A stretch of 64,000 nucleotides of DNA from a candidate division TM6 bacterium GW2011_GWF2_43_87 (lineage in GTDB: Bacteria > Babelota > Babeliae > Babelales > Babelaceae), in contig LCGZ01000001.1 in the NCBI GenBank assembly GCA_001000065.1, positions 248,001 through 312,000 of the forward strand, given 5' to 3'. A model generated the notes under the pieces. It was given only the letters and a program-made list of their open reading frames with translations, did not search any database and had not been told where the DNA came from. Shown piece after piece: positions 19,844 to 62,098 of this stretch. Numbering within the stretch: the stretch's first letter is position 1; each line of letters starts with the position of its first letter. A program made the translations under genes and the position numbers.

Positions 19844-21913
19844 TTAATCAAACATTCTAAAAAATGCATCCGATCGTGGCTCGCGTCCCAAAAACTCCTG
19901 CATAAATTCATTAGGATCCCTAGAACCACCTTGACCAAGTACCTGCGCAGCAAATCGCTTGCCTACCGACTCATTAAGCAATCCATCCTGCTCTTTAATG
20001 CAGCAAAAAAGATCAACCGCAAATACCTGCGACCAGAGATAGCTATAATACCGAGCTCCATATACCGCCAGATGACCAAAGGAACACTCTGAATGATCCC
20101 GCTCATCACTCCCTATTCCCGGATAATCAATCTGATCTCTTAATAAAGGAAGCTTTCCATCTCGCAATTGAACTCCAGAAAAACAATCAAGTGCAAACCG
20201 AGCCGCCCCTGACTGACCCCGCACAAAAAAACCCGTTTCAAATGAACGCAACGCGCATAACAACTTAATGGTTGCATCATCCAAGGCCTCACCCGTTTGG
20301 TAATGGCAACTTATCCGCTTTAAAACAATTGGATCGTAAAGCCACTCTTCAAACATCTGCGACGGCGTCTCAACAAAGTCTCGTGACGTTGCCGTTCCCG
20401 AAAAACTCACCAAATCGGTTGCCCCAAGCAGCGCATGCATCGCATGCCCAAACTCATGAAAAAATGTTCGTACACTCTCAAATGGCAGCAACGCAGGTTG
20501 CGTGAGCGTTGGCTTTGGGAAATTAGCAACAATAACAATCACTGCAGGATAGCGGCCCTCTGCATGGCTAGAAACTGCAGGGAGTATGGACATTTCACAC
20601 GCGTGTGAAAACTTGCCTTCCCGCGGAAACAGATCTAAAAATATATGGCCAAGCAGCGTGCCATCTCGAGCATAAGCCGCAATATAACGAACATCCTCAT
20701 GCCACAGCCCCTGAACCGGCTCCTGTCTAAATTCAATTCCTAAAAACTGTTCATAAATAGACAATAGAGCATCCACAGTATGCTGCACAGGGAAATAAAA
20801 TTTCAGCGCCTGCTCATCAAGAGACAAACAACGCTTCTTATATGCCTCTTTTACATAGGGAACATCCCACTGATGAAGCTCCCCCGAAGACGTAAGCTCA
20901 ACCCCTTCGGGTATATTTTCGGTCCACAACGTCCACTCTCGCTCATATTTTTTGAGTGACTTGGCGCGCATATCATCTAAAAATGCAATCACTCTTTTTG
21001 GGGTCTTTGCCATCTCATTTACTAGATCAAGATGTGCACAACTTGCAAATCCCAACAACGCGGCTAACTGACCTCTCAATGCAATAAGCTGCTTTAAAAC
21101 ATCTTGATTCTCGGGGTAAGCTCGACTACGGAAAGCAGCCCAAACCGCCTCGCGCGTCTTTGATACCCTGCAGTTTTCTAACACTGCATGATAGGTACTC
21201 GCGGTAACTTCAAGCAAATATCGCCCCGCATCGTCACACACAAGACCATCTAACAATTTATCATCCACGCCTGCAAAGTCCTTTGGTGCAACTGCCACAA
21301 CCGCTCGCGCATTATTTATATTAGTCTGAAACTGCAACCCTACCTCAGAAATCTTCTCGCAAAGCACTTTGAGCTCTTGCAATTTGTCATCAGGCAATCC
21401 AAGCCCATTTAATTCAAAACTACGTAACGAATGCTCCAGATAACATTTTTGCTCACAAGTAAGATATTCATTTGAACCAGCAGAAAGCCCACGATCATAA
21501 TCGCAAAATGCCTTATATAAGCTGCGATTCAAACCCCATTCATTCACTAAAAACACACTAAACTTAAGATACCCCTGACTAGCAGCATCGCGCATCACTT
21601 TATCAGGATGCGTCATAACGGTTAATTCAAGAAGCGCTGCAAGCAAAGAGGCAAACCCACTCAACCGATCTTCCATTCGAATTGTGCTATCGAAGGTACG
21701 GCTCCCCGCTGGTTGATTAACAATATAATCTAATCCAGCCTTAAGCGTTGCCACCGCAGACTCAATGCGACGATTAATCTCTTCGGGTGACTTAAAAAAA
21801 AGCGTGGCAACATCCGATTTAGTTTCAATCCGTGGATACGGATCTACAAATGCCGGAGCAACTCCTGCAAAACACAGTGCACCAAAAAGACACAGAACAA
21901 CTCTACTCTTCAT
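19844..21913 (-). CDS. exported M3-family zinc oligopeptidase
   Basis: The 689-residue metallopeptidase belongs to family M3 (thimet oligopeptidase/Dcp/OpdA). The zinc site HEFGHAMH is at residues 486-493, and the third ligand lies in the following FVETPSQMFEEW segment. The N-terminal helical domain, with NEMAKTPKRVIAFLDDM, is as in the family. A signal peptide (MKSRVVLCLFGALCFAGVAPAF) is clear, so it acts outside the cytoplasm, degrading short peptides, perhaps as food from the host. GGGAGAG lies just upstream. It follows a close paralogue with 17 bp between them. The pair shares the order of motifs over the whole length and arose by tandem duplication. Confidence 0.88.
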   Translation of the reverse strand: MKSRVVLCLFGALCFAGVAPAFVDPYPRIETKSDVATLFFKSPEEINRRIESAVATLKAGLDYIVNQPAGSRTFDSTIRMEDRLSGFASLLAALLELTVMTHPDKVMRDAASQGYLKFSVFLVNEWGLNRSLYKAFCDYDRGLSAGSNEYLTCEQKCYLEHSLRSFELNGLGLPDDKLQELKVLCEKISEVGLQFQTNINNARAVVAVAPKDFAGVDDKLLDGLVCDDAGRYLLEVTASTYHAVLENCRVSKTREAVWAAFRSRAYPENQDVLKQLIALRGQLAALLGFASCAHLDLVNEMAKTPKRVIAFLDDMRAKSLKKYEREWTLWTENIPEGVELTSSGELHQWDVPYVKEAYKKRCLSLDEQALKFYFPVQHTVDALLSIYEQFLGIEFRQEPVQGLWHEDVRYIAAYARDGTLLGHIFLDLFPREGKFSHACEMSILPAVSSHAEGRYPAVIVIVANFPKPTLTQPALLPFESVRTFFHEFGHAMHALLGATDLVSFSGTATSRDFVETPSQMFEEWLYDPIVLKRISCHYQTGEALDDATIKLLCALRSFETGFFVRGQSGAARFALDCFSGVQLRDGKLPLLRDQIDYPGIGSDERDHSECSFGHLAVYGARYYSYLWSQVFAVDLFCCIKEQDGLLNESVGKRFAAQVLGQGGSRDPNEFMQEFLGREPRSDAFFRMFD

Positions 21914-21930: not shown

Positions 21931-23973
21931 TTACGAGGTAAATTCGCTAAAAAATGCCTCTGAATTAGGCTCACGTCCCAAAAACTGCTTCATCAACTCA
22001 TTAGGCTCTACCGCTCCACCACGGCCCAAAACCTGCGCAGCAAAACGGTGCCCAACCTCCGCATTAAAGAGCCCCTGCTCCTTAATATAGTGGAATAGGT
22101 CCAATGCAAACACTTTCGACCATAGGTAGCTATAGTACCGTGCGCCGTATTCGGTCAAATGACCAAATGAGCAGGCAAAATGTTTCCGATCATCATAGAT
22201 TACCTCCGGCATCACCAAAGTATGAAGTTGCCGATCAAGCGCTGAAAGGTTCTTCACTTCTCCCGACTTAAAACAGTTAAGCGCAAAAAGCGAAAGTCCT
22301 ACTTGGCGCTGTGCAAACATACCCTTATCAAAGCACTTTTGGCCGCATAGTCGTTCAATAGTCAGGTCATCCAAAGGTTCACCTGTTTGATAATGGCAAC
22401 TTACACGCTTTAACACAGTAGGATCGTACAACCACTCCTCAAACATCTGCGATGGAGTTTCGACAAAATCAAGCCGTGTATTAGTTCCCGAGAATCCAAC
22501 CATATCTGTAGCTCCAAGCAGAGCATGCATAGCATGACCAAATTCATGAAAAAAGGTCTCAACATCCCTAAAAGAAAGCAATGCTGGTTGCGTAGCAGTT
22601 GCCTTTGGGAAATTGGCAATAACTGCAATCACAGCAGGGCAACGAGAACCACTAGCATGGTCGGGTAAAGTTAAGGCGCTGACCAGAGTCATTTCACACG
22701 CATGAGTGTACTTAAAGTCTCGAGGGAAAAGATCCAATAACAGGTGACCTAGCAGCGCTCCATTCTGGGCATAGGCCGCTACATAGCGCACATCCTCGTG
22801 CCAAAGGCCTGTCACCACCTCTTGCCTAAACTCGATTCCCAAAAACTGTTCATAGAGAGATAAAAGCTCGTCCAGAGTACGCTGTGCTGAAAAATATTCT
22901 TTCAAATGCTGTTCATCCAGGGACAAATGCTTCTTTTTATAACTAGCTTTAATAAAAGAAAGATCCCAGGGATAAAGTTTACCATCAGACGAACGTTTGA
23001 CGCCTTCTGGCATTTCTGAAGTCCAGAGCTCTAACTCTTGATGACTTTTTTCAAGTGATTTTACACGCATCTCTTCTAAAAAGGCATCCACGCGCTCGGG
23101 CGTCTTTGCCATCTGATCTTCTAAATTAAGGTGAGAAAAGCTGGCAAAGCCAAGCATATGGGCAATTTTGTCACGTAATGCAATAATGCGCTTTAAAAGC
23201 TCTTCATTCTCAGGATAGGCTCTATTTTCACGAGCAACCCATAAGGCCTCACGGGTAGCCGCAACCTTACAGTGCTCTATAACAGCGGTATAGGTTGGCA
23301 TATCAACGCCTAGGATATAGCGCCCCTCCGCATCACGTTTTAAACTCTCAATAAAGACATCATTAAGACCATCCAAACCCGCGCGATCAACCGTTATGGC
23401 ATTTAGCGCCTTATTAATATTCAAGCCAAAAGCAATTTCAGCTTCGGCAAGCTCTTTTTTTAATTTTATTACCTCAGTCCTTTTTTCATCGGAGAGCCCC
23501 ATGCCCTCACGTTCAAAAATACGCAAGGATTCATCCAAATAGCGCCTCTGCTCATCAGTAAGCGCCTCATTTTTTCCTTGCAGCTGTGCATACTCATTAA
23601 AAGCTCGGTACAAATCCTTATTCATCTGAATACTATCAATCAGGAAAGCCTGAAGCTTAAGCGTCCCTCGTTGAGCTGCATCACGCAATGTTTCATCGGG
23701 ATTGGTCATACTAACCAGATTGAGCACAGATAACACGGTCTGCGCAAGCCCAACTAATTGATCTTCTGCACGAATTGTATCATCAAAGGTTCGTTTGTAA
23801 GCTGCTCGCTCTACAATAGTATCAATACCCTTCTGAACTTCCCAGATAGTGTCGTCTACGCGCCTTTCAATCTCCCGAACGGTTTTGGGGAATAGGGCAA
23901 CAACGGCATCTCTGTTTTCGACTTTTAAAATCATAGAATCACACTTTTGTAAGAAATGGCACCCAGCCAGCAA
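21931..23973 (-). CDS. M3-family zinc oligopeptidase, signal peptide lost by apparent frameshift
   Basis: This paralogue of the downstream M3 peptidase keeps the complete catalytic domain, with HEFGHAMH near residue 476 and FVETPSQMFEEW after it. The reading frame begins at a TTG (23973) or ATG (23934). Upstream, at 24034, an ATG with a strong GGGGGGTGGAG site opens a different frame. It encodes a basic, hydrophobic signal-like leader of 31 residues ending at a TGA (23941-23939). Shifting frame by one base there joins the leader smoothly to VDSMILKVE, which aligns with VDPYPRIE of the paralogue. The exported form thus appears broken, leaving a possibly cytoplasmic peptidase. A sequencing error or programmed shift are alternatives. 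Confidence 0.82.
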   Translation of the reverse strand: MLAGCHFLQKCDSMILKVENRDAVVALFPKTVREIERRVDDTIWEVQKGIDTIVERAAYKRTFDDTIRAEDQLVGLAQTVLSVLNLVSMTNPDETLRDAAQRGTLKLQAFLIDSIQMNKDLYRAFNEYAQLQGKNEALTDEQRRYLDESLRIFEREGMGLSDEKRTEVIKLKKELAEAEIAFGLNINKALNAITVDRAGLDGLNDVFIESLKRDAEGRYILGVDMPTYTAVIEHCKVAATREALWVARENRAYPENEELLKRIIALRDKIAHMLGFASFSHLNLEDQMAKTPERVDAFLEEMRVKSLEKSHQELELWTSEMPEGVKRSSDGKLYPWDLSFIKASYKKKHLSLDEQHLKEYFSAQRTLDELLSLYEQFLGIEFRQEVVTGLWHEDVRYVAAYAQNGALLGHLLLDLFPRDFKYTHACEMTLVSALTLPDHASGSRCPAVIAVIANFPKATATQPALLSFRDVETFFHEFGHAMHALLGATDMVGFSGTNTRLDFVETPSQMFEEWLYDPTVLKRVSCHYQTGEPLDDLTIERLCGQKCFDKGMFAQRQVGLSLFALNCFKSGEVKNLSALDRQLHTLVMPEVIYDDRKHFACSFGHLTEYGARYYSYLWSKVFALDLFHYIKEQGLFNAEVGHRFAAQVLGRGGAVEPNELMKQFLGREPNSEAFFSEFTS

Positions 23974-53886: not shown

Positions 53887-53950
53887 TCCAAAACAATTTG
53901 GCAAAAAATCATGCCATAGCGCAAAGCACGAAGGCGGAAAGATTAAAGCC

Positions 53951-54595
53951 TTACACCGTCCTGGACCACCACGAGAAAAAGGTCTTACGCGACTTTCTTT
54001 TTTCACCATCCTTTGGCAACTTACCCTGCGATGATTTACCCTGATTGGACCATGCAAAAAAAAGTGCATCCGATTGCTTAAGCGGGCTTGCAGGTGGTTT
54101 TGACTCCACCTTTAAATTTTCAGTGTACTCGCTTGAGCGCCCATAAAAACGGTAAAACCTATCACTTGCTCGCAGTAGGTGCCAGAGCGTCAATACTCCA
54201 TGAAAACCAGAGGCAGGCACCGAAAGCAGGCGACAAGAGCGCGGAATAACTCCGTACTTATAAGCCACTATTCCCAACGCTGCAAGCATAACCTCATGCA
54301 CACCACGCGCCATCTCAAGCGCACCGGTATTGCATGCATTTCCATCGCCCAATGCAGAGTACTCCACAAAACCACGATAGCCCAGCGCCAGTACAAATAG
54401 CCCACCATATAAAGCCCCAGCCATACGATGTCCTGCAATCCATTGCATACCTGCACCCACAGGATGCATAACCTGTGCAATCCAGTCTGCCTTGTGGATA
54501 TCATCTATGGGCAAAAAACCGCGACATGGTTCTGCATGCGCCGTAATCACACTAGCAACTACAACAACCACCATCATACATTTCAAATTGCTCAT
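53951..54595 (-). CDS. exported membrane protein, unknown
   Basis: The 214-residue protein has a hydrophobic N-terminal signal (CMMVVVVVASVITAHA), a short soluble part, and three hydrophobic helices (ALYGGLFVLALGY, VMLAALGIVAYKY, FHGVLTLWHLL). A highly basic, Ser/Lys-rich tail follows (GEKRKSRKTFFSWW). AAGGAG nine bases upstream selects 54595. No family. It is the last of three minus-strand exported membrane protein genes. The FHGVLTLWHLL motif echoes LVASGLWHAST in the 55395 protein, hinting at distant kinship. Confidence 0.5.
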   Translation of the reverse strand: MSNLKCMMVVVVVASVITAHAEPCRGFLPIDDIHKADWIAQVMHPVGAGMQWIAGHRMAGALYGGLFVLALGYRGFVEYSALGDGNACNTGALEMARGVHEVMLAALGIVAYKYGVIPRSCRLLSVPASGFHGVLTLWHLLRASDRFYRFYGRSSEYTENLKVESKPPASPLKQSDALFFAWSNQGKSSQGKLPKDGEKRKSRKTFFSWWSRTV

Positions 54596-54620
54596 CCCCA
54601 TTCTCTCCTTATACTCTCTA

Positions 54621-54782
54621 TCAACGTTTAAAGGTATACAACAGTGCCCCGGTGATAGTATCCCAAATTTTGATAAAGTTAGTCGATAGTGTGGCAAAAA
54701 ACTGTTTCATCCAAAGACCAAAAACAGCACTCACAACCTTCTCTTTCCGAGATTGATAGTGCATAATTTTCGGTCGCAGCAT
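54621..54782 (-). pseudogene. one-blade WD40 remnant (53 codons)
   Basis: A 53-codon open frame fills the gap between two exported protein genes. Its end, KQFFATLSTNFIKIWDTITG followed by ALLYTF, is a good match to one WD40 blade (xxLATgSxDxxIKIWDxxTGxLLxTF). The preceding KVVSAVFGL resembles the incoming strand (VxSVxFSPDG). A single blade cannot form a propeller, so this is most likely the remnant of a longer WD40 gene, or a tiny gene in the operon. The ribosome site is weak. Confidence 0.5.
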
Positions 54783-54806
54783 TTCCCATTTATTAAATCA
54801 CGTAAA

Positions 54807-55349
54807 TCACGCTGTAAGATCTTCAAACCCGTCCGGACTTTCTTTCTTCTGAGCCCTTACAATCGCCTTAAAAGCCCAATCACCATAAGTTACCGTAAGG
54901 TAAGTTCGCCAACCCGCAGCCAAGACATTACTCCACACCAAAAAACCTTCTCCACGTTTATGATAGAGCTCATTCATCAACCAGAAAACCGTTCCGCAAC
55001 ATGAACCAAAATTTTGCCATGAAGCAACAGAATAGGCTTGAGCTGCTAGTCTCTCCTCTTTAGCCGTCAAAGACGCCATCTTTTTATTCTTGCAAGCAAG
55101 ACGCACAGCGCCAATTGCTAACGCATCCGTCAATGCACCGCCTACAAAGAGTGCCCCTGCTCCAATCAAAGCTCCTTTGCGATACCCATGCGCATGCGTT
55201 GCATTTCTAAGAAAGGGTGCCGCCTGAACCAATGAAACGGCAGTATTCAACGCCGCCCTAAAAGCAAACTGGCCTGTCAACACAGCCTTTGACTCAACAG
55301 AAAGCATGGTTACGCACAATGCCAAAAATACAAAACTTTTTTTTAACAC
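54807..55349 (-). CDS. exported membrane protein, unknown
   Basis: The 180-residue protein starts at a GTG (55349) with GGAGG five bases upstream. It begins with the signal LKKSFVFLALCVTMLSVESKA, and hydrophobic segments follow (GALIGAGALFVGGALTDALAI; WSNVLAAGWRTYLTVTYGDW). Several aromatic and Cys residues cluster in NFGSCCGTVFWL. No family recognised. It follows the 55395 gene by 45 bp, in the same orientation. The order of a glycine-rich helix followed by a Trp-rich helix is similar to its two neighbours. Confidence 0.5.
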   Translation of the reverse strand: MLKKSFVFLALCVTMLSVESKAVLTGQFAFRAALNTAVSLVQAAPFLRNATHAHGYRKGALIGAGALFVGGALTDALAIGAVRLACKNKKMASLTAKEERLAAQAYSVASWQNFGSCCGTVFWLMNELYHKRGEGFLVWSNVLAAGWRTYLTVTYGDWAFKAIVRAQKKESPDGFEDLTA

Positions 55350-55394
55350 GACAACCTCCATTATTTTGGTTTTATCCATTATTACTCAACAAAA

Positions 55395-56489
55395 TTAGTT
55401 GTCAAAATCAGTAGGCGGCTTGCTCTGAATCAACTTAATCTGGTCCAGTGTATTTTTAACACTATTCTGAAACTGGCTAAACGCATTGTAAGCCTGAGCA
55501 TACCTATTTTTAGCAGCCTGAATACGCAACTGAAGGGGCGGTAACGATGACAAGTCACCATTTGGAATCACTGTATCAATGTCATGCAGAAGTTGAGATT
55601 GCAACTGTTCAACCGCTTTCTTTTCAAAATCATACGTCTGTTCTGCATCTGTTATAGATTGACACCACTGGTTAAGCGTCAATCCACCTAGAACATTGAT
55701 CGCCGCCTGTAATTGGTTCTCGGCCCGCTTCAAACCTTTCTCGTCTCGAGGAATAATTTTTTCTTTCAACTCTTTTACGTACTTCTCAAACTCCTCAGGA
55801 TCCTGTTCCTTGTCCTCTTTGGCCTTTTTATTCCCTTCCTTAAGATAAACCTCATGCTCAAGAAGCCATTTAGAGTACAGAAGTACAGTCCGCTGTATCA
55901 AACTTATGTAAAACTGAACATCTGATTTGCAGTGCTCAAGGCCTGAAGAACCCAATGTCGACCTAATAATATTATTCGCATCATTATAAAGTAAACGCAA
56001 CTGATTCTGCCGCTCCGCCTTCGCCCTAAGCTGCATCCCCACAACTCCATGGCCTACAGCCGTAGATGCATGCCATAACCCCGATGCAACCAACGACCAA
56101 AAAAGCGGTCTCGAAGCAGTTTTGCGCACAGAATAAAAAACCTCTACATCCCCTATTAATGAAATTGCGCTCATAAATCCCGCCAGGAAGTGCTGGTTGG
56201 AAGCGGAAATTGAGCTATTAAACAAGTTGCAATGCTTTAAAACAGGGAATATTACACCTCTAAGCGCATAACAGCCTGCACGAATAGCCGCACGAGAGCC
56301 TATATGCGTCCACCAGCTCGACAAATAGTATGCGGTAGTAGGAACTGCAGCAACTCCATCCACCACTCTATAACCTAGCGAACGCGCCCCTCCATCCGTA
56401 AGCAATCTTAAAGGATTACCTACAGGCGATGCCTGACAAAATAGCAACACGACGCCAGCCATCAAAACCATTAATTTGTTTCGAATCAT
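55395..56489 (-). CDS. exported membrane/coiled-coil protein, unknown
   Basis: The 364-residue protein has a signal peptide (MIRNKLMVLMAGVVLLFCQAS) and an N-terminal half with hydrophobic patches (HFLAGFMSAISLIG, FWSLVASGLWHASTAVGHGV). The C-terminal half is a charged coiled coil (residues ~205-355, KEGNKKAKEDKEQDPEEFEKY). No family. GGAGG precedes the ATG. First of three co-oriented exported genes down to 53951. The coiled-coil tail suggests oligomers or a partner. Confidence 0.5.
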   Translation of the reverse strand: MIRNKLMVLMAGVVLLFCQASPVGNPLRLLTDGGARSLGYRVVDGVAAVPTTAYYLSSWWTHIGSRAAIRAGCYALRGVIFPVLKHCNLFNSSISASNQHFLAGFMSAISLIGDVEVFYSVRKTASRPLFWSLVASGLWHASTAVGHGVVGMQLRAKAERQNQLRLLYNDANNIIRSTLGSSGLEHCKSDVQFYISLIQRTVLLYSKWLLEHEVYLKEGNKKAKEDKEQDPEEFEKYVKELKEKIIPRDEKGLKRAENQLQAAINVLGGLTLNQWCQSITDAEQTYDFEKKAVEQLQSQLLHDIDTVIPNGDLSSLPPLQLRIQAAKNRYAQAYNAFSQFQNSVKNTLDQIKLIQSKPPTDFDN

Positions 56490-56900
56490 TGGAAAAATCC
56501 TCCACCAGGAAATGTTTTCAAGAGAAACTCATTTTTAAATAAAAACGGTTCACATTAAAAGAAAGTGTAGCAAAACACCACTTTTTTTCAACCCCAGGTG
56601 CATTCACCTCCATTCACCTCCACTAACCTCACCACAGCACTGTATAAAAATGCACGTACATTTTGTTAACTCAAGGCGCAAAAGTAACGGACCGTCTTCC
56701 ACCAAAAATTTAGTAAAACTACAAAGATAATACTATCGCAAGTGAAGGAGATGAAGAAGCAGGCCGTTTCCCAACACACCAACCAAACTTCCGATCTATT
56801 TGCACTAAAAAACAGTATTTGATATTTTACTTAAAATATATATAATTAAAACTATACAATTAATTAGCGATATTAACCAAAATTTAAAGGAATAATTTCT
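56490..56900. other. intergenic region with promoters and a short tandem repeat
   Basis: About 410 bases between divergent exported genes. It contains the 10-base tandem repeat at 56601-56630 and AT-rich promoter sequence near 56820-56880. No gene is accepted here; a 23-codon plus-strand frame at ~56752 has its ribosome site too close to the start. Confidence 0.4.
56601..56630. repeat. 10-bp tandem repeat, three copies
   Basis: CATTCACCTC occurs twice in a row, then CACTAACCTC, a third copy with two changes. On the minus strand the unit reads GAGGTGAATG, a ribosome site beside an ATG, repeated upstream of the 55395 gene. Confidence 0.8.
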
Positions 56901-59087
56901 ATGAAAAAAATCTTATCTTTTTTACTGACAACAAGCTTCATGCTCGCGGTCGCATGCCCTCATACTACCTATAGCTGCGAAGACCAAAAAACAGAATGCT
57001 CAACCCCGCTTACGTTTAAGAAACTAAAACTCAAAACTCTGGAACCGAATGAAAAAACAGACCTTGCTCAAATTCTTGCGACACGACTAAAATATGTATT
57101 AGCTGTACTAGCTGAGTCTGCTGCAAAAAAATACGATATAGATGTAGCAGAATTCGACAATGTCATGCTTGAATTGCGAAACAAAATCAACACTCTACGA
57201 GATAAACTATCCTCCAAAAACACTGATCTACTTTCGGATATAGACCGCTTAACCGCCCAGGAATCGCCTAATTACAACCTACAACTTGTGAACTGCTATA
57301 TGGAACTTCGCCTGGATTTTACTAAAAAATTCTTCCATCGCCTTTGCAAAAATTTCATGAAAGTAAAAACCGATTACGACTTCACCCTCCCTCTAGAGTT
57401 TGAAATACAGCTTGAACAAGCTTCATCCAATAAATTCTATTTTTTCTCCTTAAATAATTTCGAAAATAAAAACAATTCGGGCAAAAACACAGACACAATG
57501 AACCTACTGGATAAATTAATAAAAGTTTCAGAGACCTTTGAACTACCTGACAAAATCAAAACAAAAATCACCTCTGATTTGTTAAAATCAAGAGCAACCC
57601 TCAAAATACTGCACAAGACCTGCTCCACGTTTGAATCATCCCTCGGGTTATTTATAGAAAAAGCACGACCACTTTTTGAACTCTACAAGAAATTACTCAC
57701 ATCCTTAGTACCCAGCCCAAATGGCGAAAACCTACAAGCCTTAGGAGTATTGGACGCGCTATTGCTCTGCAGCTCAACCACGGTTTCTGAATTAAAAACC
57801 ATTACTCAAAGCTTGAACTCACTACAAAATTTACTAACCATCATCAAAGAAACTCGTTTTTTACAAAAATACCAGAATGCTTATTGCCTTCAAAAGGACG
57901 GCGACCCGTTTTTAAACCCCAATGCTCCATCAAAAGAATTGCGTAATAAAACATTAGGCGACCTACTTCAAACCCCCGGATTTATGTTTTTATTCTGGGG
58001 AACTTTCATTGATAACGGCTTAGAAAAAAAAATAGATTGTGGTCAAATTCATGATTCTTGCATGGAAAAAGACACCATAGAAAACATAAAGCTCTTTAAA
58101 AAAATAAACAGTGTCTATCTGCTCCATCCTTTACTTGAGAAAACTATCGAACAGCTTAAATCTACACAAAACAATCTCCTTGAAAATCAGAATAAGAAAG
58201 CAAAAGAACTAGAACAGAAAAAAAATCTCAAAAATCAGAAAAAGCTCTGGAAAAAACAGAACGAAAAAGCACTAACAAAACTATTTTCCGAAGAGCCAAA
58301 ATGTCAAAAAAAAGAGATTGCTAAAGAGATTGCTCCTGTCGAAGAAGAATTCTCAACTACTGATACCCCCACAACCACGACCAATACACCCTGCAATAAA
58401 ACAGCTAAAACTCTAAATAAGGCGAAAAAGGAAAAATGCGAAAAAGTTCTCGCTCCTCTTAACGCACACAATTCCCCACAGCAAGCCATTGATGAGGTAA
58501 ATAACTTTTTTGAACAAACCAAAACCCCCACCTTCTTCAAGTTAAACGACATTATTCTTACAGAATCCCACCTTACATCCTCTGCAGGAGATTTTTTAAA
58601 AGGAGTTGTAATTGCATACAAAAAACCAGAAAACCCCCTAGATCTAAAACCTGAAAATATTGATTTTAGCGCCCTGTCCACTCATGAAATATTCCACAAA
58701 ACTGCGGTTGAATCCCTTAGGAAGAACCCCGACCTGCTTAAAAAATGTGAAAAAATAGAACGGGACTACCTAGGGGAATGCGAAGAGAAGAGTCTTAAAA
58801 ACACAATTGGACTATGGCTTCAAAATGACACGACCCTAATCGCACTTCTTCCCTGCCTTATCAGAACTTCAAGCGACAAGTCAAAAAACCTATTCAAAGA
58901 GATTAGCGAAAAAATAAAGGAAGGCAGTCTATTAGACGACCGGCTCGCATTGGGTCTACACAAAGGGACTATAGCTCTCTTACTCACCCACTCAAAAACA
59001 AAGTCAGATAAATTAAAATACAAGGCCCAACACCTATTCTTTCATGAAGACACAGAGACTAAGCAGTTTCATATCAATAAAAAATAG
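56901..59087 (+). CDS. large exported helical protein, unknown
   Basis: The 728-residue protein has a signal peptide (MKKILSFLLTTSFMLAVACP); the LAVAC stretch could be a lipobox, with Cys at residue 19. The mature part is Lys/Glu/Leu-rich helical. A coiled coil lies near residues 415-460 (NQKKLWKKQNEKALTKLF), and a Thr/Pro-rich linker (TDTPTTTTNTPC) precedes a C-terminal domain. Cysteines are scattered, with a CSTPL and an ESLKN-type end. No family. It resembles the 24217 protein in composition. AAAGGA lies nine bases before the ATG. Confidence 0.55.
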   Translation: MKKILSFLLTTSFMLAVACPHTTYSCEDQKTECSTPLTFKKLKLKTLEPNEKTDLAQILATRLKYVLAVLAESAAKKYDIDVAEFDNVMLELRNKINTLRDKLSSKNTDLLSDIDRLTAQESPNYNLQLVNCYMELRLDFTKKFFHRLCKNFMKVKTDYDFTLPLEFEIQLEQASSNKFYFFSLNNFENKNNSGKNTDTMNLLDKLIKVSETFELPDKIKTKITSDLLKSRATLKILHKTCSTFESSLGLFIEKARPLFELYKKLLTSLVPSPNGENLQALGVLDALLLCSSTTVSELKTITQSLNSLQNLLTIIKETRFLQKYQNAYCLQKDGDPFLNPNAPSKELRNKTLGDLLQTPGFMFLFWGTFIDNGLEKKIDCGQIHDSCMEKDTIENIKLFKKINSVYLLHPLLEKTIEQLKSTQNNLLENQNKKAKELEQKKNLKNQKKLWKKQNEKALTKLFSEEPKCQKKEIAKEIAPVEEEFSTTDTPTTTTNTPCNKTAKTLNKAKKEKCEKVLAPLNAHNSPQQAIDEVNNFFEQTKTPTFFKLNDIILTESHLTSSAGDFLKGVVIAYKKPENPLDLKPENIDFSALSTHEIFHKTAVESLRKNPDLLKKCEKIERDYLGECEEKSLKNTIGLWLQNDTTLIALLPCLIRTSSDKSKNLFKEISEKIKEGSLLDDRLALGLHKGTIALLLTHSKTKSDKLKYKAQHLFFHEDTETKQFHINKK

Positions 59088-59234
59088 GTAAAAACCCCAA
59101 CAGCTCGTATAAGCAAAGCATTTTACAGCTCTAAAACATAGACAAAACCTTGACTAAAGTTTGCTTTTAATAGACACTGACTAAGTATTTTTTATACTCA
59201 ATAATTTACTTTAATGACAAGTGGAGGATATACT

Positions 59235-60206
59235 ATGTCTATAATTAGAATATGGAAAAAGAAAGCGATCTGTTCTACCTATTTTTTGGTTGCGTCGGTC
59301 TTGGCAACTCTTTGCCTACTGCCACACGTTGCATTCGCTGAAGATGATGAGGATTGTTGCATTGTATGTGCAAGTACATTCAACAATGATACCAACATGA
59401 AAATCGCCGTGCATCCCACAGCTGACAACGAAGCATCCAAACACTACATATGCGGCGCATGCCTTATGCACCAAAATAATCATGGCAGCTACTCTTTGGA
59501 AGAATGTCCAAGCTGCAAAAAACCGATCGAAAATCGCGAACAGCTCTACCAAAACCCGGTTCTTGTCAACGTAAAAGAAGATGCAGGAACCAATCCTAAT
59601 GCCTGTCTCATATGCCTAAAACCGCTTGGTCTATTTAGAAGAGGGATTGCTTTGCACCCCGAAGCACTTCTTGATAAAGACAAGCACTGTGTATGTGTTG
59701 ACTGTCTAACTAACATAGAAAAAAGAGGCGATAACGCCTGTTCTCATTGCAACAATGTTGTTAACCTCACAGCAAGACTTAGAGCCGCCCCCTTCTGTCT
59801 AGGTTGCAAATACCGCAGGCTTATACATAAACCTCTAACCCAATTCACCAACTATTCCTACAAAAACCTGCTTCGCCCTTACACATACAACCTTTTAGCC
59901 GGTTCTATCTGCGGCGTACTTGCAGACAGACTAATTTCACGAAACCGTTGGGTAAGATTTGCAGCTAGTATGGGAATATTAATAACATTTCCCATCATGA
60001 ATTGTCAATTGGTAACCTCGCGCAACCCTTCTCTAACCGTTGCTTATGATGCAGGCGTGGCAACATACCTTTCAAATGCTAAAATTGAACAGATCGGCCG
60101 CTCTGCTGCTCGCAAAATCGCGCCACAGATAAGCAGGCTGTATAACCTCGTATCAAGACGGTCCAGCTCTACGCGATCAACACCATTCATTCCGCAGACC
60201 GTTTAA
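59235..60206 (+). CDS. exported protein with two tandem RING-like zinc domains
   Basis: The 323-residue protein has a basic signal peptide ending near FAEDDED (residue ~38). Two zinc-binding units follow with the same layout. Unit 1 has C42-x2-C45, H60, H70-x2-C73-x2-C76 and C91-x2-C94. Unit 2 has C124-x2-C127, H141, H151-x2-C154-x2-C157 and C169-x2-C172. This is a RING/U-box-like cross-brace layout in which His of an HP motif replaces the usual third Cys. A lone CLGC (188-191) follows, and then two hydrophobic segments. RING domains recruit ubiquitin E2 enzymes. Start 59235 is set by GGAGGA seven bases upstream. Confidence 0.72.
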   Translation: MSIIRIWKKKAICSTYFLVASVLATLCLLPHVAFAEDDEDCCIVCASTFNNDTNMKIAVHPTADNEASKHYICGACLMHQNNHGSYSLEECPSCKKPIENREQLYQNPVLVNVKEDAGTNPNACLICLKPLGLFRRGIALHPEALLDKDKHCVCVDCLTNIEKRGDNACSHCNNVVNLTARLRAAPFCLGCKYRRLIHKPLTQFTNYSYKNLLRPYTYNLLAGSICGVLADRLISRNRWVRFAASMGILITFPIMNCQLVTSRNPSLTVAYDAGVATYLSNAKIEQIGRSAARKIAPQISRLYNLVSRRSSSTRSTPFIPQTV

Positions 60207-60231
60207 ACCAAAAAAAACGCGATTAGTTTAA

Positions 60232-60283
60232 AAACTAGAGGGCCATTGCAGAAGACAAAACTCCTGCAATGGCCCTCTAGTTT
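60232..60283. terminator. long bidirectional hairpin terminator
   Basis: A perfect 20-base stem (60232-60251 with 60264-60283) has a 12-base loop and lies between the convergent RING-like gene and the dehydrogenase gene. Confidence 0.85.
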
Positions 60284-60320
60284 AGTATGGTTCAACTCTC
60301 AAAACCTCAACGGTACTTTT

Positions 60321-61139
60321 CTACAAGCCCCCAATAACATCGTAAAAAAGCCAATCGGGCAGATGGTTCATTAACCACCCAATTATCCACCAGCGCCGCG
60401 TAATAAAGACCCGCTTTTCATGCCCTTTTATGGCATCGCAAATCTGCACGGCCGCGTCATGCGCCGACGCAATCCAATACGCCCCTGGCATATTGCACGC
60501 ATCAAACCCTTCGGTCTGCACATATCCCGGCAAAACATCCGTAACAAAAATATTTTTATAGCTCTGCATACGAAGAGAATTTCTAACCCCTTCAAGGTAC
60601 CTACTCACAAATGCCTTTGCCGCACTGTAAATAGGACATGCAGGATTACCACGCAATGCATCAACTGACGAAATACCAACTAAATGACCAAAGCCCTGCT
60701 TTTTAAAAACTTCCATGGCCACATAGGCCATCTTCCAAAACCCAAGAAGCTCCACGTTCAATGTAGCTCTATCCGTAGCTAAACACGGCTTTCCCTGGGT
60801 ATCTGGGTACGAGGTAACACTAATCACTATTAAACTAAGACCACCCATTTCCCCTATAAAATTCGACAGCTCCTCCATAGCATTGTCGGCCGAAACATCT
60901 ATGCTCCGAACCCACGTCTTGCTATCGGGAATTGCAGATTTAATCTCATCCTGAACAGCTTCAAGCACCGCAAGGCGCCTAGAAACCAGGCCTACATCAT
61001 AGTCACGTGCCAATAGCTGCGCGACTTGTCGACCTATACCGGATGACGCCCCTATCACTAGGGCCTTCTGACGAGCATCGCATACCCCTATGCATCCCGT
61101 CAGGGCCACCGCCATCACGGTTACCCAAAACTTCCCCAT
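60321..61139 (-). CDS. short-chain dehydrogenase/reductase with lipoprotein-like signal
   Basis: The 272-residue SDR has the NAD(P) motif IGASSGIGRQV just after the N-terminal leader, the catalytic Ser in GISSVDA and YSAAK with Tyr and Lys. The C-terminal part ends in a hydrophobic stretch (RRWWIIGWLMNHLPDWLFY), as in membrane-associated SDRs. The N-terminus (MGKFWVTVMAVALTGC) has a lipobox-like LTGC, odd for an NAD(P)-dependent enzyme, whose cofactor is cytosolic. Either the leader is only an anchor or the enzyme works outside with host cofactor. Substrate unknown; lipid or sterol-type reduction is possible. Confidence 0.82.
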   Translation of the reverse strand: MGKFWVTVMAVALTGCIGVCDARQKALVIGASSGIGRQVAQLLARDYDVGLVSRRLAVLEAVQDEIKSAIPDSKTWVRSIDVSADNAMEELSNFIGEMGGLSLIVISVTSYPDTQGKPCLATDRATLNVELLGFWKMAYVAMEVFKKQGFGHLVGISSVDALRGNPACPIYSAAKAFVSRYLEGVRNSLRMQSYKNIFVTDVLPGYVQTEGFDACNMPGAYWIASAHDAAVQICDAIKGHEKRVFITRRWWIIGWLMNHLPDWLFYDVIGGL

Positions 61140-61282
61140 CACACCCCTCTCCTAACCCTCTGCAAACCATCCCTTCCCCACTACACGCTCTTGCTTTCCC
61201 CAGGAACCACTCTACAAAATCAAACCTATGAAACTCAAGAAATGATTAGAAAGAATTTTTACAAAGCTAACAATAGCCTCCC

Positions 61283-62071
61283 TCAACTCTTTTGCGTACA
61301 ATTTGATGCACCAAGCAGCTTCCGATACATAAATACATTCGCAAGGGTCGCCACCGGTATTGTCAATAGCCCCGCAAGAAGCAGAACCATAATAAAAAAT
61401 CCATGCACGGGGTGCGTATTTAACACGGCAAAAAGAAATAGGCCCTGTAAAAAAGGAATATTAATAATGAGTATCAACAACAAGGACATAAATAAAGCCA
61501 TCGCCTTTCCGCAGGTCAAACGAGCACTCTCCTTAAGCGCATTAAGAGGACAACACTGCTTATCAATCAAAATTTGACGATAGAACCAGAGACGAATAGC
61601 AAAAAAGACTCCAGGGACTATAAAAAACACAAGACCGGAAAAAACAATCAGAACATATAATACCGTTGCAATAAGATGACGGAAGGCCAATCGCACTTGA
61701 GAGAGCAGAAGGTCCGCCCCACTCCTCTGCCCATCATACTGACCAAGGGCTATACGAGTAACTCCCATTCTAATAATGCCACCAAGCAATTCAAAAAACA
61801 GCAAAAACACAATACCCAAAAAAACAATTTTATACGTAGCATAATGCGCAACCATTGCCTCTGGATAGGCAAAGGCCCAGGTCTCTGGAACCGTACCCAA
61901 AAAGACGCGCCCTGCAAAGCCGATAGGCAACATAAGTGAAACCCATTGAACTATAAATACAACTAATTTTACAAGGCTTACAACGACCCACGACCCAAAT
62001 GAGTCAATAGCCGTGGAAAACCCAAACTTCAGCATATCCCGGTCACTGTAAAGACGTTCCTTCACAACCAT
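61283..62071 (-). CDS. integral membrane protein, DUF975/YciC-like
   Basis: The 262-residue protein has six hydrophobic segments. The mid-region PGVFFAIRLWFYRQILIDK...LNALKESARLTCGKAMALF follows the pattern of DUF975/GPDP-membrane/UPF0259 proteins (PGixlxxrlxfxxxxlvd..spxxAlkxSxxltxGxxxxlf). These are poorly characterised membrane proteins. The start at 62071 is chosen for AAAGGAG six bases upstream; the frame extends further to 62098 without such a site. Confidence 0.65.
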   Translation of the reverse strand: MVVKERLYSDRDMLKFGFSTAIDSFGSWVVVSLVKLVVFIVQWVSLMLPIGFAGRVFLGTVPETWAFAYPEAMVAHYATYKIVFLGIVFLLFFELLGGIIRMGVTRIALGQYDGQRSGADLLLSQVRLAFRHLIATVLYVLIVFSGLVFFIVPGVFFAIRLWFYRQILIDKQCCPLNALKESARLTCGKAMALFMSLLLILIINIPFLQGLFLFAVLNTHPVHGFFIMVLLLAGLLTIPVATLANVFMYRKLLGASNCTQKS

Positions 62072-62098
62072 ACCCTGCTCCTTTAGAAAACTCCCCAT

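What the first reader, a model, noticed from the sequence alone, without database searches (positions are those of the whole stretch)
59235..60206. Two tandem RING-like domains with a His in place of the third Cys ligand
Both units show the same spacing: C-x2-C, a His in HP about 14 residues later, a second His exactly ten residues on, then C-x2-C and C-x2-C. Classical RING uses Cys at the third site. The identical deviation in both copies implies a conserved variant zinc site and duplication, in an exported protein, next to other ubiquitin-related candidates.
Basis: partly seen in the sequence, partly recalled or inferred. Interest (0 to 1): 0.75.

Follow-up and report, generated by a model that had tools for sequence, protein, structure and literature searches.

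The report
Exported bacterial protein with tandem RINGs
A parasitic bacterium of the Babelota (TM6) group exports a protein with two variant RING zinc domains that use a histidine where most RINGs use a cysteine; it is probably a host-directed ubiquitin ligase, a new variant of a known kind of effector rather than a new kind of protein.

Summary
ORF 59235-60206 encodes 323 aa: a signal-peptide-like N-terminus, two RING-type units with ligand order CC-H-H-CC-CC (C2H2C4), and a helical, partly hydrophobic C-terminus. Both units are RINGs. An HMM built without them scores them 41.6 and 38.2 bits (best of 1000 shuffles 7.9). The unit profile finds RNF4, RING1B and TRIM32 in the PDB. AlphaFold models of both units match RING folds. 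The third-site His is conserved: present in 14 of 19 units from three related genomes. Four of the five exceptions also lack the fourth ligand and an intact ligand 7/8 pair but keep 1, 2, 5 and 6, as a cross-brace zinc site predicts. However, C2H2C4 is a recognised RING type (MDM2), the Pro of 'HP' is not conserved, the two units are not each other's closest relatives, and no ubiquitin-related gene is a near neighbour (the F-box/LRR gene is 45 kb away). Best reading: a Sec-exported, possibly membrane-tethered RING effector of an obligate protist parasite. Unit 1 keeps E2-contact features; unit 2 lacks the linchpin and may be structural. Pfam and NCBIfam miss the protein. E3 activity is inferred, not shown. 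It is a new variant of a known kind.

The parts
59223..59227 (+). Shine-Dalgarno-like GGAGG, 7 nt before the ATG at 59235
   Evidence: sequence read directly
59235..60206 (+). ORF, 323 aa: exported tandem RING-C2H2C4 protein
   Evidence: no Pfam family over cut-off, no NCBIfam hit
59235..59339 (+). signal-peptide-like N-terminus (residues 1-35, hydrophobic core 11-29, AFA before ED)
   Evidence: hydropathy 2.15; cleavage site by eye
59358..59516 (+). RING unit 1, ligands C42 C45 H60 H70 C73 C76 C91 C94; E2-contact-like V44 and K95 after the last ligand
   Evidence: E 2.2e-20, unit is in the model; left-out HMM 41.6 bits
59412..59414 (+). third-site histidine of unit 1 (H60, codon CAT)
59604..59750 (+). 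RING unit 2, ligands C124 C127 H141 H151 C154 C157 C169 C172; no CP and no Arg/Lys after the last ligand
   Evidence: E 7.1e-19, unit is in the model; left-out HMM 38.2 bits
59655..59657 (+). third-site histidine of unit 2 (H141, codon CAC)
59796..59807 (+). extra C-x2-C (C188/C191) after unit 2, role unknown
59862..60080 (+). predicted helices 210-234, 238-259, 265-282; 242-260 hydrophobic (possible membrane segment)
   Evidence: low confidence, pLDDT mostly under 55
60235..60280 (.). 20-pair hairpin between this gene and the converging SDR gene; the scan calls a terminator-like site on the - strand
53887..61282 (.). segment between mutL and a conserved membrane-protein gene, holding this gene and five others; in the same-genus relative the two flanking genes are adjacent
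   Evidence: L052

Best explanation
The gene encodes an exported protein of a Babelota (Dependentiae/TM6) bacterium, carrying two RING zinc domains of the C2H2C4 type in tandem and a helical C-terminal part that may sit in a membrane. Each unit binds two zinc ions in a cross-brace: ligands 1, 2, 5, 6 form one site and His3, His4, Cys7, Cys8 the other. Most likely it acts on the host side as a ubiquitin E3 ligase. Unit 1 would recruit a host E2~ubiquitin (hydrophobic residue before the second Cys, Pro and Lys around the last pair). Unit 2, without the linchpin, would serve as a structural or dimerising partner or a substrate contact. Shown here: RING homology, ligand conservation, and absence of the gene from the equivalent place in the nearest relative. 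Inferred: zinc loading, export beyond the cell envelope, membrane anchoring, E2 binding, ligase activity. I put the RING fold at about 0.93 and host-directed E3 activity at about 0.5.
For: RING homology: the profile of the units finds RNF4 (E 7e-11 for a two-RING chain, 1.2e-4 per domain), RING1B and TRIM32 in the PDB. Individual units hit Pfam RING families down to 1.7e-5. The AlphaFold model (pLDDT 75.8) matches RINGs in both halves: unit 2 to RNF168 Z 6.1, rmsd 1.9 over 53 residues; unit 1 to Roquin Z 5.5 and TRIM32 Z 4.8. Variant ligand: third-site His in 14/19 units; units g7-g10 lack ligands 3, 4 and an intact 7/8 pair, yet keep 1, 2, 5, 6. E2 features: V/I before the second Cys in both units, K after the eighth ligand in unit 1; these are the positions named for E2 contact and linchpin in PMC13061254. 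Lifestyle: Babelota are intracellular parasites with many exported eukaryote-like proteins (PMC4378268; PMC6561590). PF13639 RINGs occur in 59/101 genomes of the phylum and in none of 14 control genomes. Precedent: Simkania SneRING, with atypical ligands, is an active E3 (PMC12591485).
Against: No activity, E2 binding or translocation was tested. Unit 2 has CSHCN, so neither CP nor a linchpin. Pfam does not call the protein and unit 1 alone reaches only E 0.023. RING Z-scores of 5-6 are middling and the arrangement of the two units is not predicted with confidence (pTM 0.50; Foldseek two-domain rmsd about 14). Several units in relatives have decayed a zinc site, which suggests a binding rather than a catalytic role for some. 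The signal peptide was judged by hydropathy only.
Confidence: 0.52

Rival explanations
1. The units are true RING-fold zinc domains that serve only as protein-binding modules, with no E2 or ligase function, exported to bind host or envelope proteins.
For: Unit 2 lacks the Pro and the linchpin; several relatives lack Arg/Lys after ligand 8; the G001 array has units with one zinc site decayed and is otherwise kept open over 1114 aa. Repeats that expand and decay look like binding arrays.
Against: Unit 1 and several relatives (L050, G031a/b, L045) keep Arg/Lys after ligand 8, and most of these also the hydrophobic residue before Cys2, which a mere scaffold would not need.
Confidence: 0.33
2. An envelope protein that stays in the bacterium (periplasm or inner membrane), with the zinc units stabilising an extracytoplasmic assembly; no host function.
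For: Signal-peptide-like N-terminus plus a hydrophobic C-terminal part, a design shared with paralogues, would by itself place the protein in the envelope. No secretion signal beyond Sec was found.
Against: RING homologues among solved structures are overwhelmingly ubiquitin-system proteins. RINGs are spread through this parasitic phylum and absent from 14 control genomes. Sec-exported eukaryote-like proteins are the proposed effectors of this phylum (PMC4378268, PMC6561590).
Confidence: 0.1
3. Not RING domains but other Cys/His zinc modules (zinc ribbons, LIM/PHD type with serial zinc sites) whose spacing only resembles RING.
For: Long variable loops; no single Pfam RING model passes its cut-off on the protein.
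Against: Profile and fold matches are to RINGs. The joint loss of ligands 3, 4 and the 7/8 pair with 1, 2, 5, 6 kept fits cross-brace sites, not serial sites.
Confidence: 0.04

Closest known systems
RING-C2H2C4 type (MDM2/Hdm2, MDMX)
   Same: Same order of eight ligands, CC-H-H-CC-CC; a cat MDM2 RING structure (6sqp) is in the Foldseek list.
   Different: Third-to-fourth ligand distance is 10 here and 9-11 in most relatives (shorter in MDM2, 5 by my recollection, not tested); bacterial, exported, two units in one chain; no evidence of common descent with MDM2 as opposed to an independent change.
Simkania negevensis SneRING and SNE_A08700/SNE_A08690 (PMC12591485)
   Same: Variant RINGs of an obligate intracellular bacterium; atypical ligands (SneRING is modelled with Asn as a site-2 ligand); [quoted passage not shown] SNE_A08690 has lost ligands of one zinc.
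   Different: SneRING has one RING plus an unrelated alpha/beta domain; its E3 activity was measured; His at the third site is not described in the passages read.
Babelota exported RING proteins (Babela massiliensis RING protein; loci L017-L022, L041, L046, L048 here)
   Same: Same phylum; mostly signal-peptide-like N-termini; several have the long loop between ligands 3 and 4.
   Different: Most of those keep Cys at or next to the third site (QFNC..., LHC...); some carry WD40-like repeats or ankyrins instead of a second RING.
TRIM-type RINGs (TRIM25, TRIM32)
   Same: Weak matches of unit 1 including its tail, TRIM25 E 0.008, TRIM32 by fold.
   Different: C3HC4; no B-box or coiled coil here; the similarity is too weak to claim descent.

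Membership tests
RING domain (fold) | eight Cys/His ligands with 1-2, 5-6 and 7-8 as C-x2-C pairs and the H-x2-C-x2-C core | tested here: met
   both units
RING domain (fold) | cross-brace pairing 1,2,5,6 / 3,4,7,8 | tested here: inconclusive
   indirect: joint loss of 3, 4 and the 7/8 pair in g7-g10 with 1, 2, 5, 6 kept, probably one or two events; no zinc in the model
RING domain (fold) | sequence-profile and fold similarity to solved RINGs | tested here: met
   RNF4 1.2e-4 per domain; RNF168 Z 6.1, Roquin Z 5.5; moderate scores
RING domain (fold) | Pfam RING family over gathering cut-off (a detection threshold, not a defining feature) | tested here: inconclusive
   none; unit 1 PF14634 E 0.023, 15.1 bits against a 27.9-bit cut-off, so below threshold; canonical models penalise the His and the long loop
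RING-C2H2C4 type | His at sites 3 and 4, Cys elsewhere | tested here: met
   both units
RING E3 ligase | hydrophobic residue before the second Cys (E2 contact) | tested here: met
   V44 in unit 1, I126 in unit 2 (feature as given in PMC13061254)
RING E3 ligase | Arg/Lys linchpin after the eighth ligand | tested here: inconclusive
   Lys in unit 1 (met), Asn in unit 2 (not met); PMC13061254 says 'generally', so not every RING has one
RING E3 ligase | E2-dependent ubiquitin transfer | not testable with these tools
   needs a biochemical assay
Babelota exported effector | signal peptide and delivery to the host | tested here: inconclusive
   signal-peptide-like N-terminus by hydropathy; delivery not testable

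The most novel reading that the evidence does not exclude
One small group of Babelota evolved its own C2H2C4 RING by shifting the third ligand one residue, from Cys in an 'LHC' motif to the preceding His ('LHP'), with a lengthened 3-4 loop. It then built tandem arrays in which one chain holds a catalytic and a non-catalytic RING, an intramolecular counterpart of RING heterodimers such as RING1B-BMI1 or MDM2-MDMX, used as a secreted E3 against protist hosts.
Probability: 0.15. Interest if true: 0.6.

Novelty: new variant of a known kind. Interest (0 to 1): 0.42.

Why it matters
The third-site His and the long loop hide these domains from the standard RING models. G031 carries two such units (E 4.9e-19 with the unit profile, which includes them) yet has no PF13639 match, so ubiquitin-system effectors in this large, mostly uncultured parasitic phylum are undercounted. 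The array in the same-genus relative, with units at different stages of zinc-site loss, is a natural mutagenesis of a RING. If unit 1 is an active ligase, the pair would test whether bacteria made a two-in-one RING dimer.

Tried and rejected
Pfam and NCBIfam on the whole protein: nothing over cut-off. Relatives in genome contigs by the whole protein: none. Profile A1 could not be used in the search for related loci. Viral contigs: none, so no sign of a viral source at that sensitivity. Shared C-terminal membrane module among paralogues: suggested by hydropathy only and not supported by alignment or by a confident model, so not claimed. The idea that the two units arose by a recent duplication in this gene was rejected on pairwise scores and a weak tree. 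Intramolecular dimer geometry: not supported by the model (two-domain rmsd about 14). A regex-made ligand table mis-set several anchors and was replaced by the anchored one. The weak TRIM25 match of the unit 1 tail was not pursued as evidence of descent.

Full report
WHAT THE WINDOW IS. The window is G000 contig C1, 248001-312000, of a 1.13-Mb genome in four contigs. Its MutL is 62% identical to that of candidate division TM6 bacterium GW2011_GWE2_42_60. That record's contig length (375,634) equals that of G001 contig C1, so G001, the same-genus relative, is very probably that bacterium. The organism is therefore of the Babelota (Dependentiae, TM6). Cultured members are intracellular parasites of protists with many exported eukaryote-like proteins; the B. 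massiliensis paper lists an F-box protein, a RING protein and secreted ubiquitin hydrolases (PMC4378268; PMC6561590).

THE OBSERVATION. The ORF starts at 59235 (GGAGG 7 nt upstream) and gives 323 aa. Ligands are C42, C45, H60, H70, C73, C76, C91, C94 and C124, C127, H141, H151, C154, C157, C169, C172. The His-His distance is 10 in both. An HMM built from ten units of other proteins scores the two units 41.6 and 38.2 bits, against at most 7.9 in 1000 shuffles. The two units align with each other better than any of 2000 shuffles.

IT IS A RING. The whole protein has no Pfam family over cut-off and no NCBIfam match. But the unit profile (A1, 13 rows, which include the two window units) finds RNF4, RING1B, TRIM32 and other RING E3s among solved structures, and individual rows hit Pfam RING families. 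AlphaFold on the 166-residue two-unit stretch, with 26 rows from the window and fetched loci, gave mean pLDDT 75.8 and pTM 0.50. Foldseek's RING hits have E-values of 0.004 and worse. VIA-align puts unit 2 on RNF168 (Z 6.1, rmsd 1.9, 53 residues) and unit 1 on Roquin (Z 5.5) and TRIM32 (Z 4.8). These Z-scores are middling by the tool's own note, but most rows are RING, U-box or RING-like domains. Zinc was not modelled.

THE HISTIDINE. Reading 19 units of the tight group by fixed anchors: the third ligand is His in 14. The exceptions are one Ser (g5), three Asn (g7-g9) and one Pro (g10). g7-g10 also lack the fourth ligand and no longer have the 7/8 C-x2-C, but all keep 1, 2, 5 and 6. That is what cross-brace sites predict; serial sites would not lose 3, 4 and 7/8 together. 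g7-g9 are near-identical copies, so this is one or two events, not four. The Pro after the His is present in W1, W2, G031a, g3, g4 and g6 but is K, R, A, Q or S elsewhere. More distant Babelota RINGs keep Cys near that place: QFNC with a long loop (L018, L041, L046, L048) or LHC (L017, L020, L022). I infer that LHP arose from LHC, the His taking over as ligand when the Cys was lost; g11 (LHSGH) is consistent with this. That is inference. His at sites 3 and 4 is a recognised RING type, C2H2C4 (PMC13061254; Hdm2 reference in PMC6465955).

RELATIVES. In its own genome the unit occurs again on C3 (107648-107860) and C2 (8662-8853), with a more distant multi-RING protein on C2 (about 184 kb). In G001 an 1114-aa exported protein carries about twelve such units or remnants (L044 2084-5428), next to a 277-aa single-unit protein, and a RING+WD40-like protein lies elsewhere (L045). 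G031, of another family, has two (L015, L039). Across the phylum 24 of 101 genomes match at E 0.01, but E below 1e-10 is confined to G000, G001 and G031, whose units are in the profile. Classic RINGs (PF13639) are in 59 of 101 genomes and in none of 14 control genomes; G031 has none although it has two units of this kind. Unit 1 is closest to the C3 paralogue and unit 2 to g5 of G001; W1 and W2 are each only about the seventh or eighth best partner of the other, and the tree is weakly supported. The tandem arrangement therefore does not look like a recent copy within this gene.

SURROUNDINGS. In the TM6 relative, mutL is followed directly by the gene for the membrane protein that in the window lies at 61283-62098. 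Here about 7.4 kb separates them, with six genes, most with signal-peptide-like N-termini: 53951-54697, 54807-55379, 55395-56489, 56901-59087, this gene, and an SDR oxidoreductase at 60321-61142. The gene is thus in a variable segment; whether it was gained here or lost there is open. None of the neighbours tested against Pfam/NCBIfam has a ubiquitin-related domain. The nearest such gene found in the window is the F-box/LRR protein at 12301-14751 (F-box E 3.5e-5, over cut-off).

MECHANISM. Most likely a Sec-exported RING effector. Unit 1 has the E2-contact hydrophobic residue and a Lys in the linchpin place; unit 2 has the hydrophobic residue but CSHCN at the end (positions as defined in PMC13061254). 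A division into a catalytic and a supporting RING is inferred. The C-terminal part is predicted helical with one clear hydrophobic stretch (242-260), but the full-length model is poor there, so membrane anchoring is only possible. [quoted passage not shown]

VERDICT. The novelty is smaller than claimed, because C2H2C4 RINGs and variant bacterial RING E3s are known. What is new is a His-variant, long-loop RING group in Babelota that standard models miss, with tandem arrays showing stepwise zinc-site loss.

Noticed in passing
L044 2084-5428 (G001 C3): An exported 1114-aa protein with about twelve RING-like units, three of them near-identical copies (g7-g9) that no longer have one zinc site; a possible model for decay and expansion of RING arrays.
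   Followed up: partly
L018, L041, L048 (G006) and L045 (G001): Exported proteins joining a variant or long-loop RING to WD40-like repeats (read by eye), a plausible substrate-binding E3 design.
   Followed up: no
12301-14751 (-): F-box (over cut-off) plus leucine-rich repeats with a possible signal peptide: likely SCF-type substrate adaptor mimic.
   Followed up: partly
53887-61282: Six-gene segment between mutL and a membrane-protein gene that are adjacent in the same-genus relative; a lineage-variable region of mostly exported proteins without known domains.
   Followed up: partly
19844-21913 and 21931-23973 (-): Two adjacent, similar M3-peptidase-like genes (HEFGHAMH motif), one with a signal-peptide-like start: an apparent tandem duplication.
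   Followed up: no
L024 (G044): One short exported protein with several C2H2-like fingers followed by a RING.
   Followed up: no
60235-60280: 20-pair inverted repeat between converging genes, longer than a usual terminator hairpin.
   Followed up: no
L049 (G000 C1:397094-397186): Weak RING-profile match (E 0.0026) in a 648-aa frame of the own genome.
   Followed up: no
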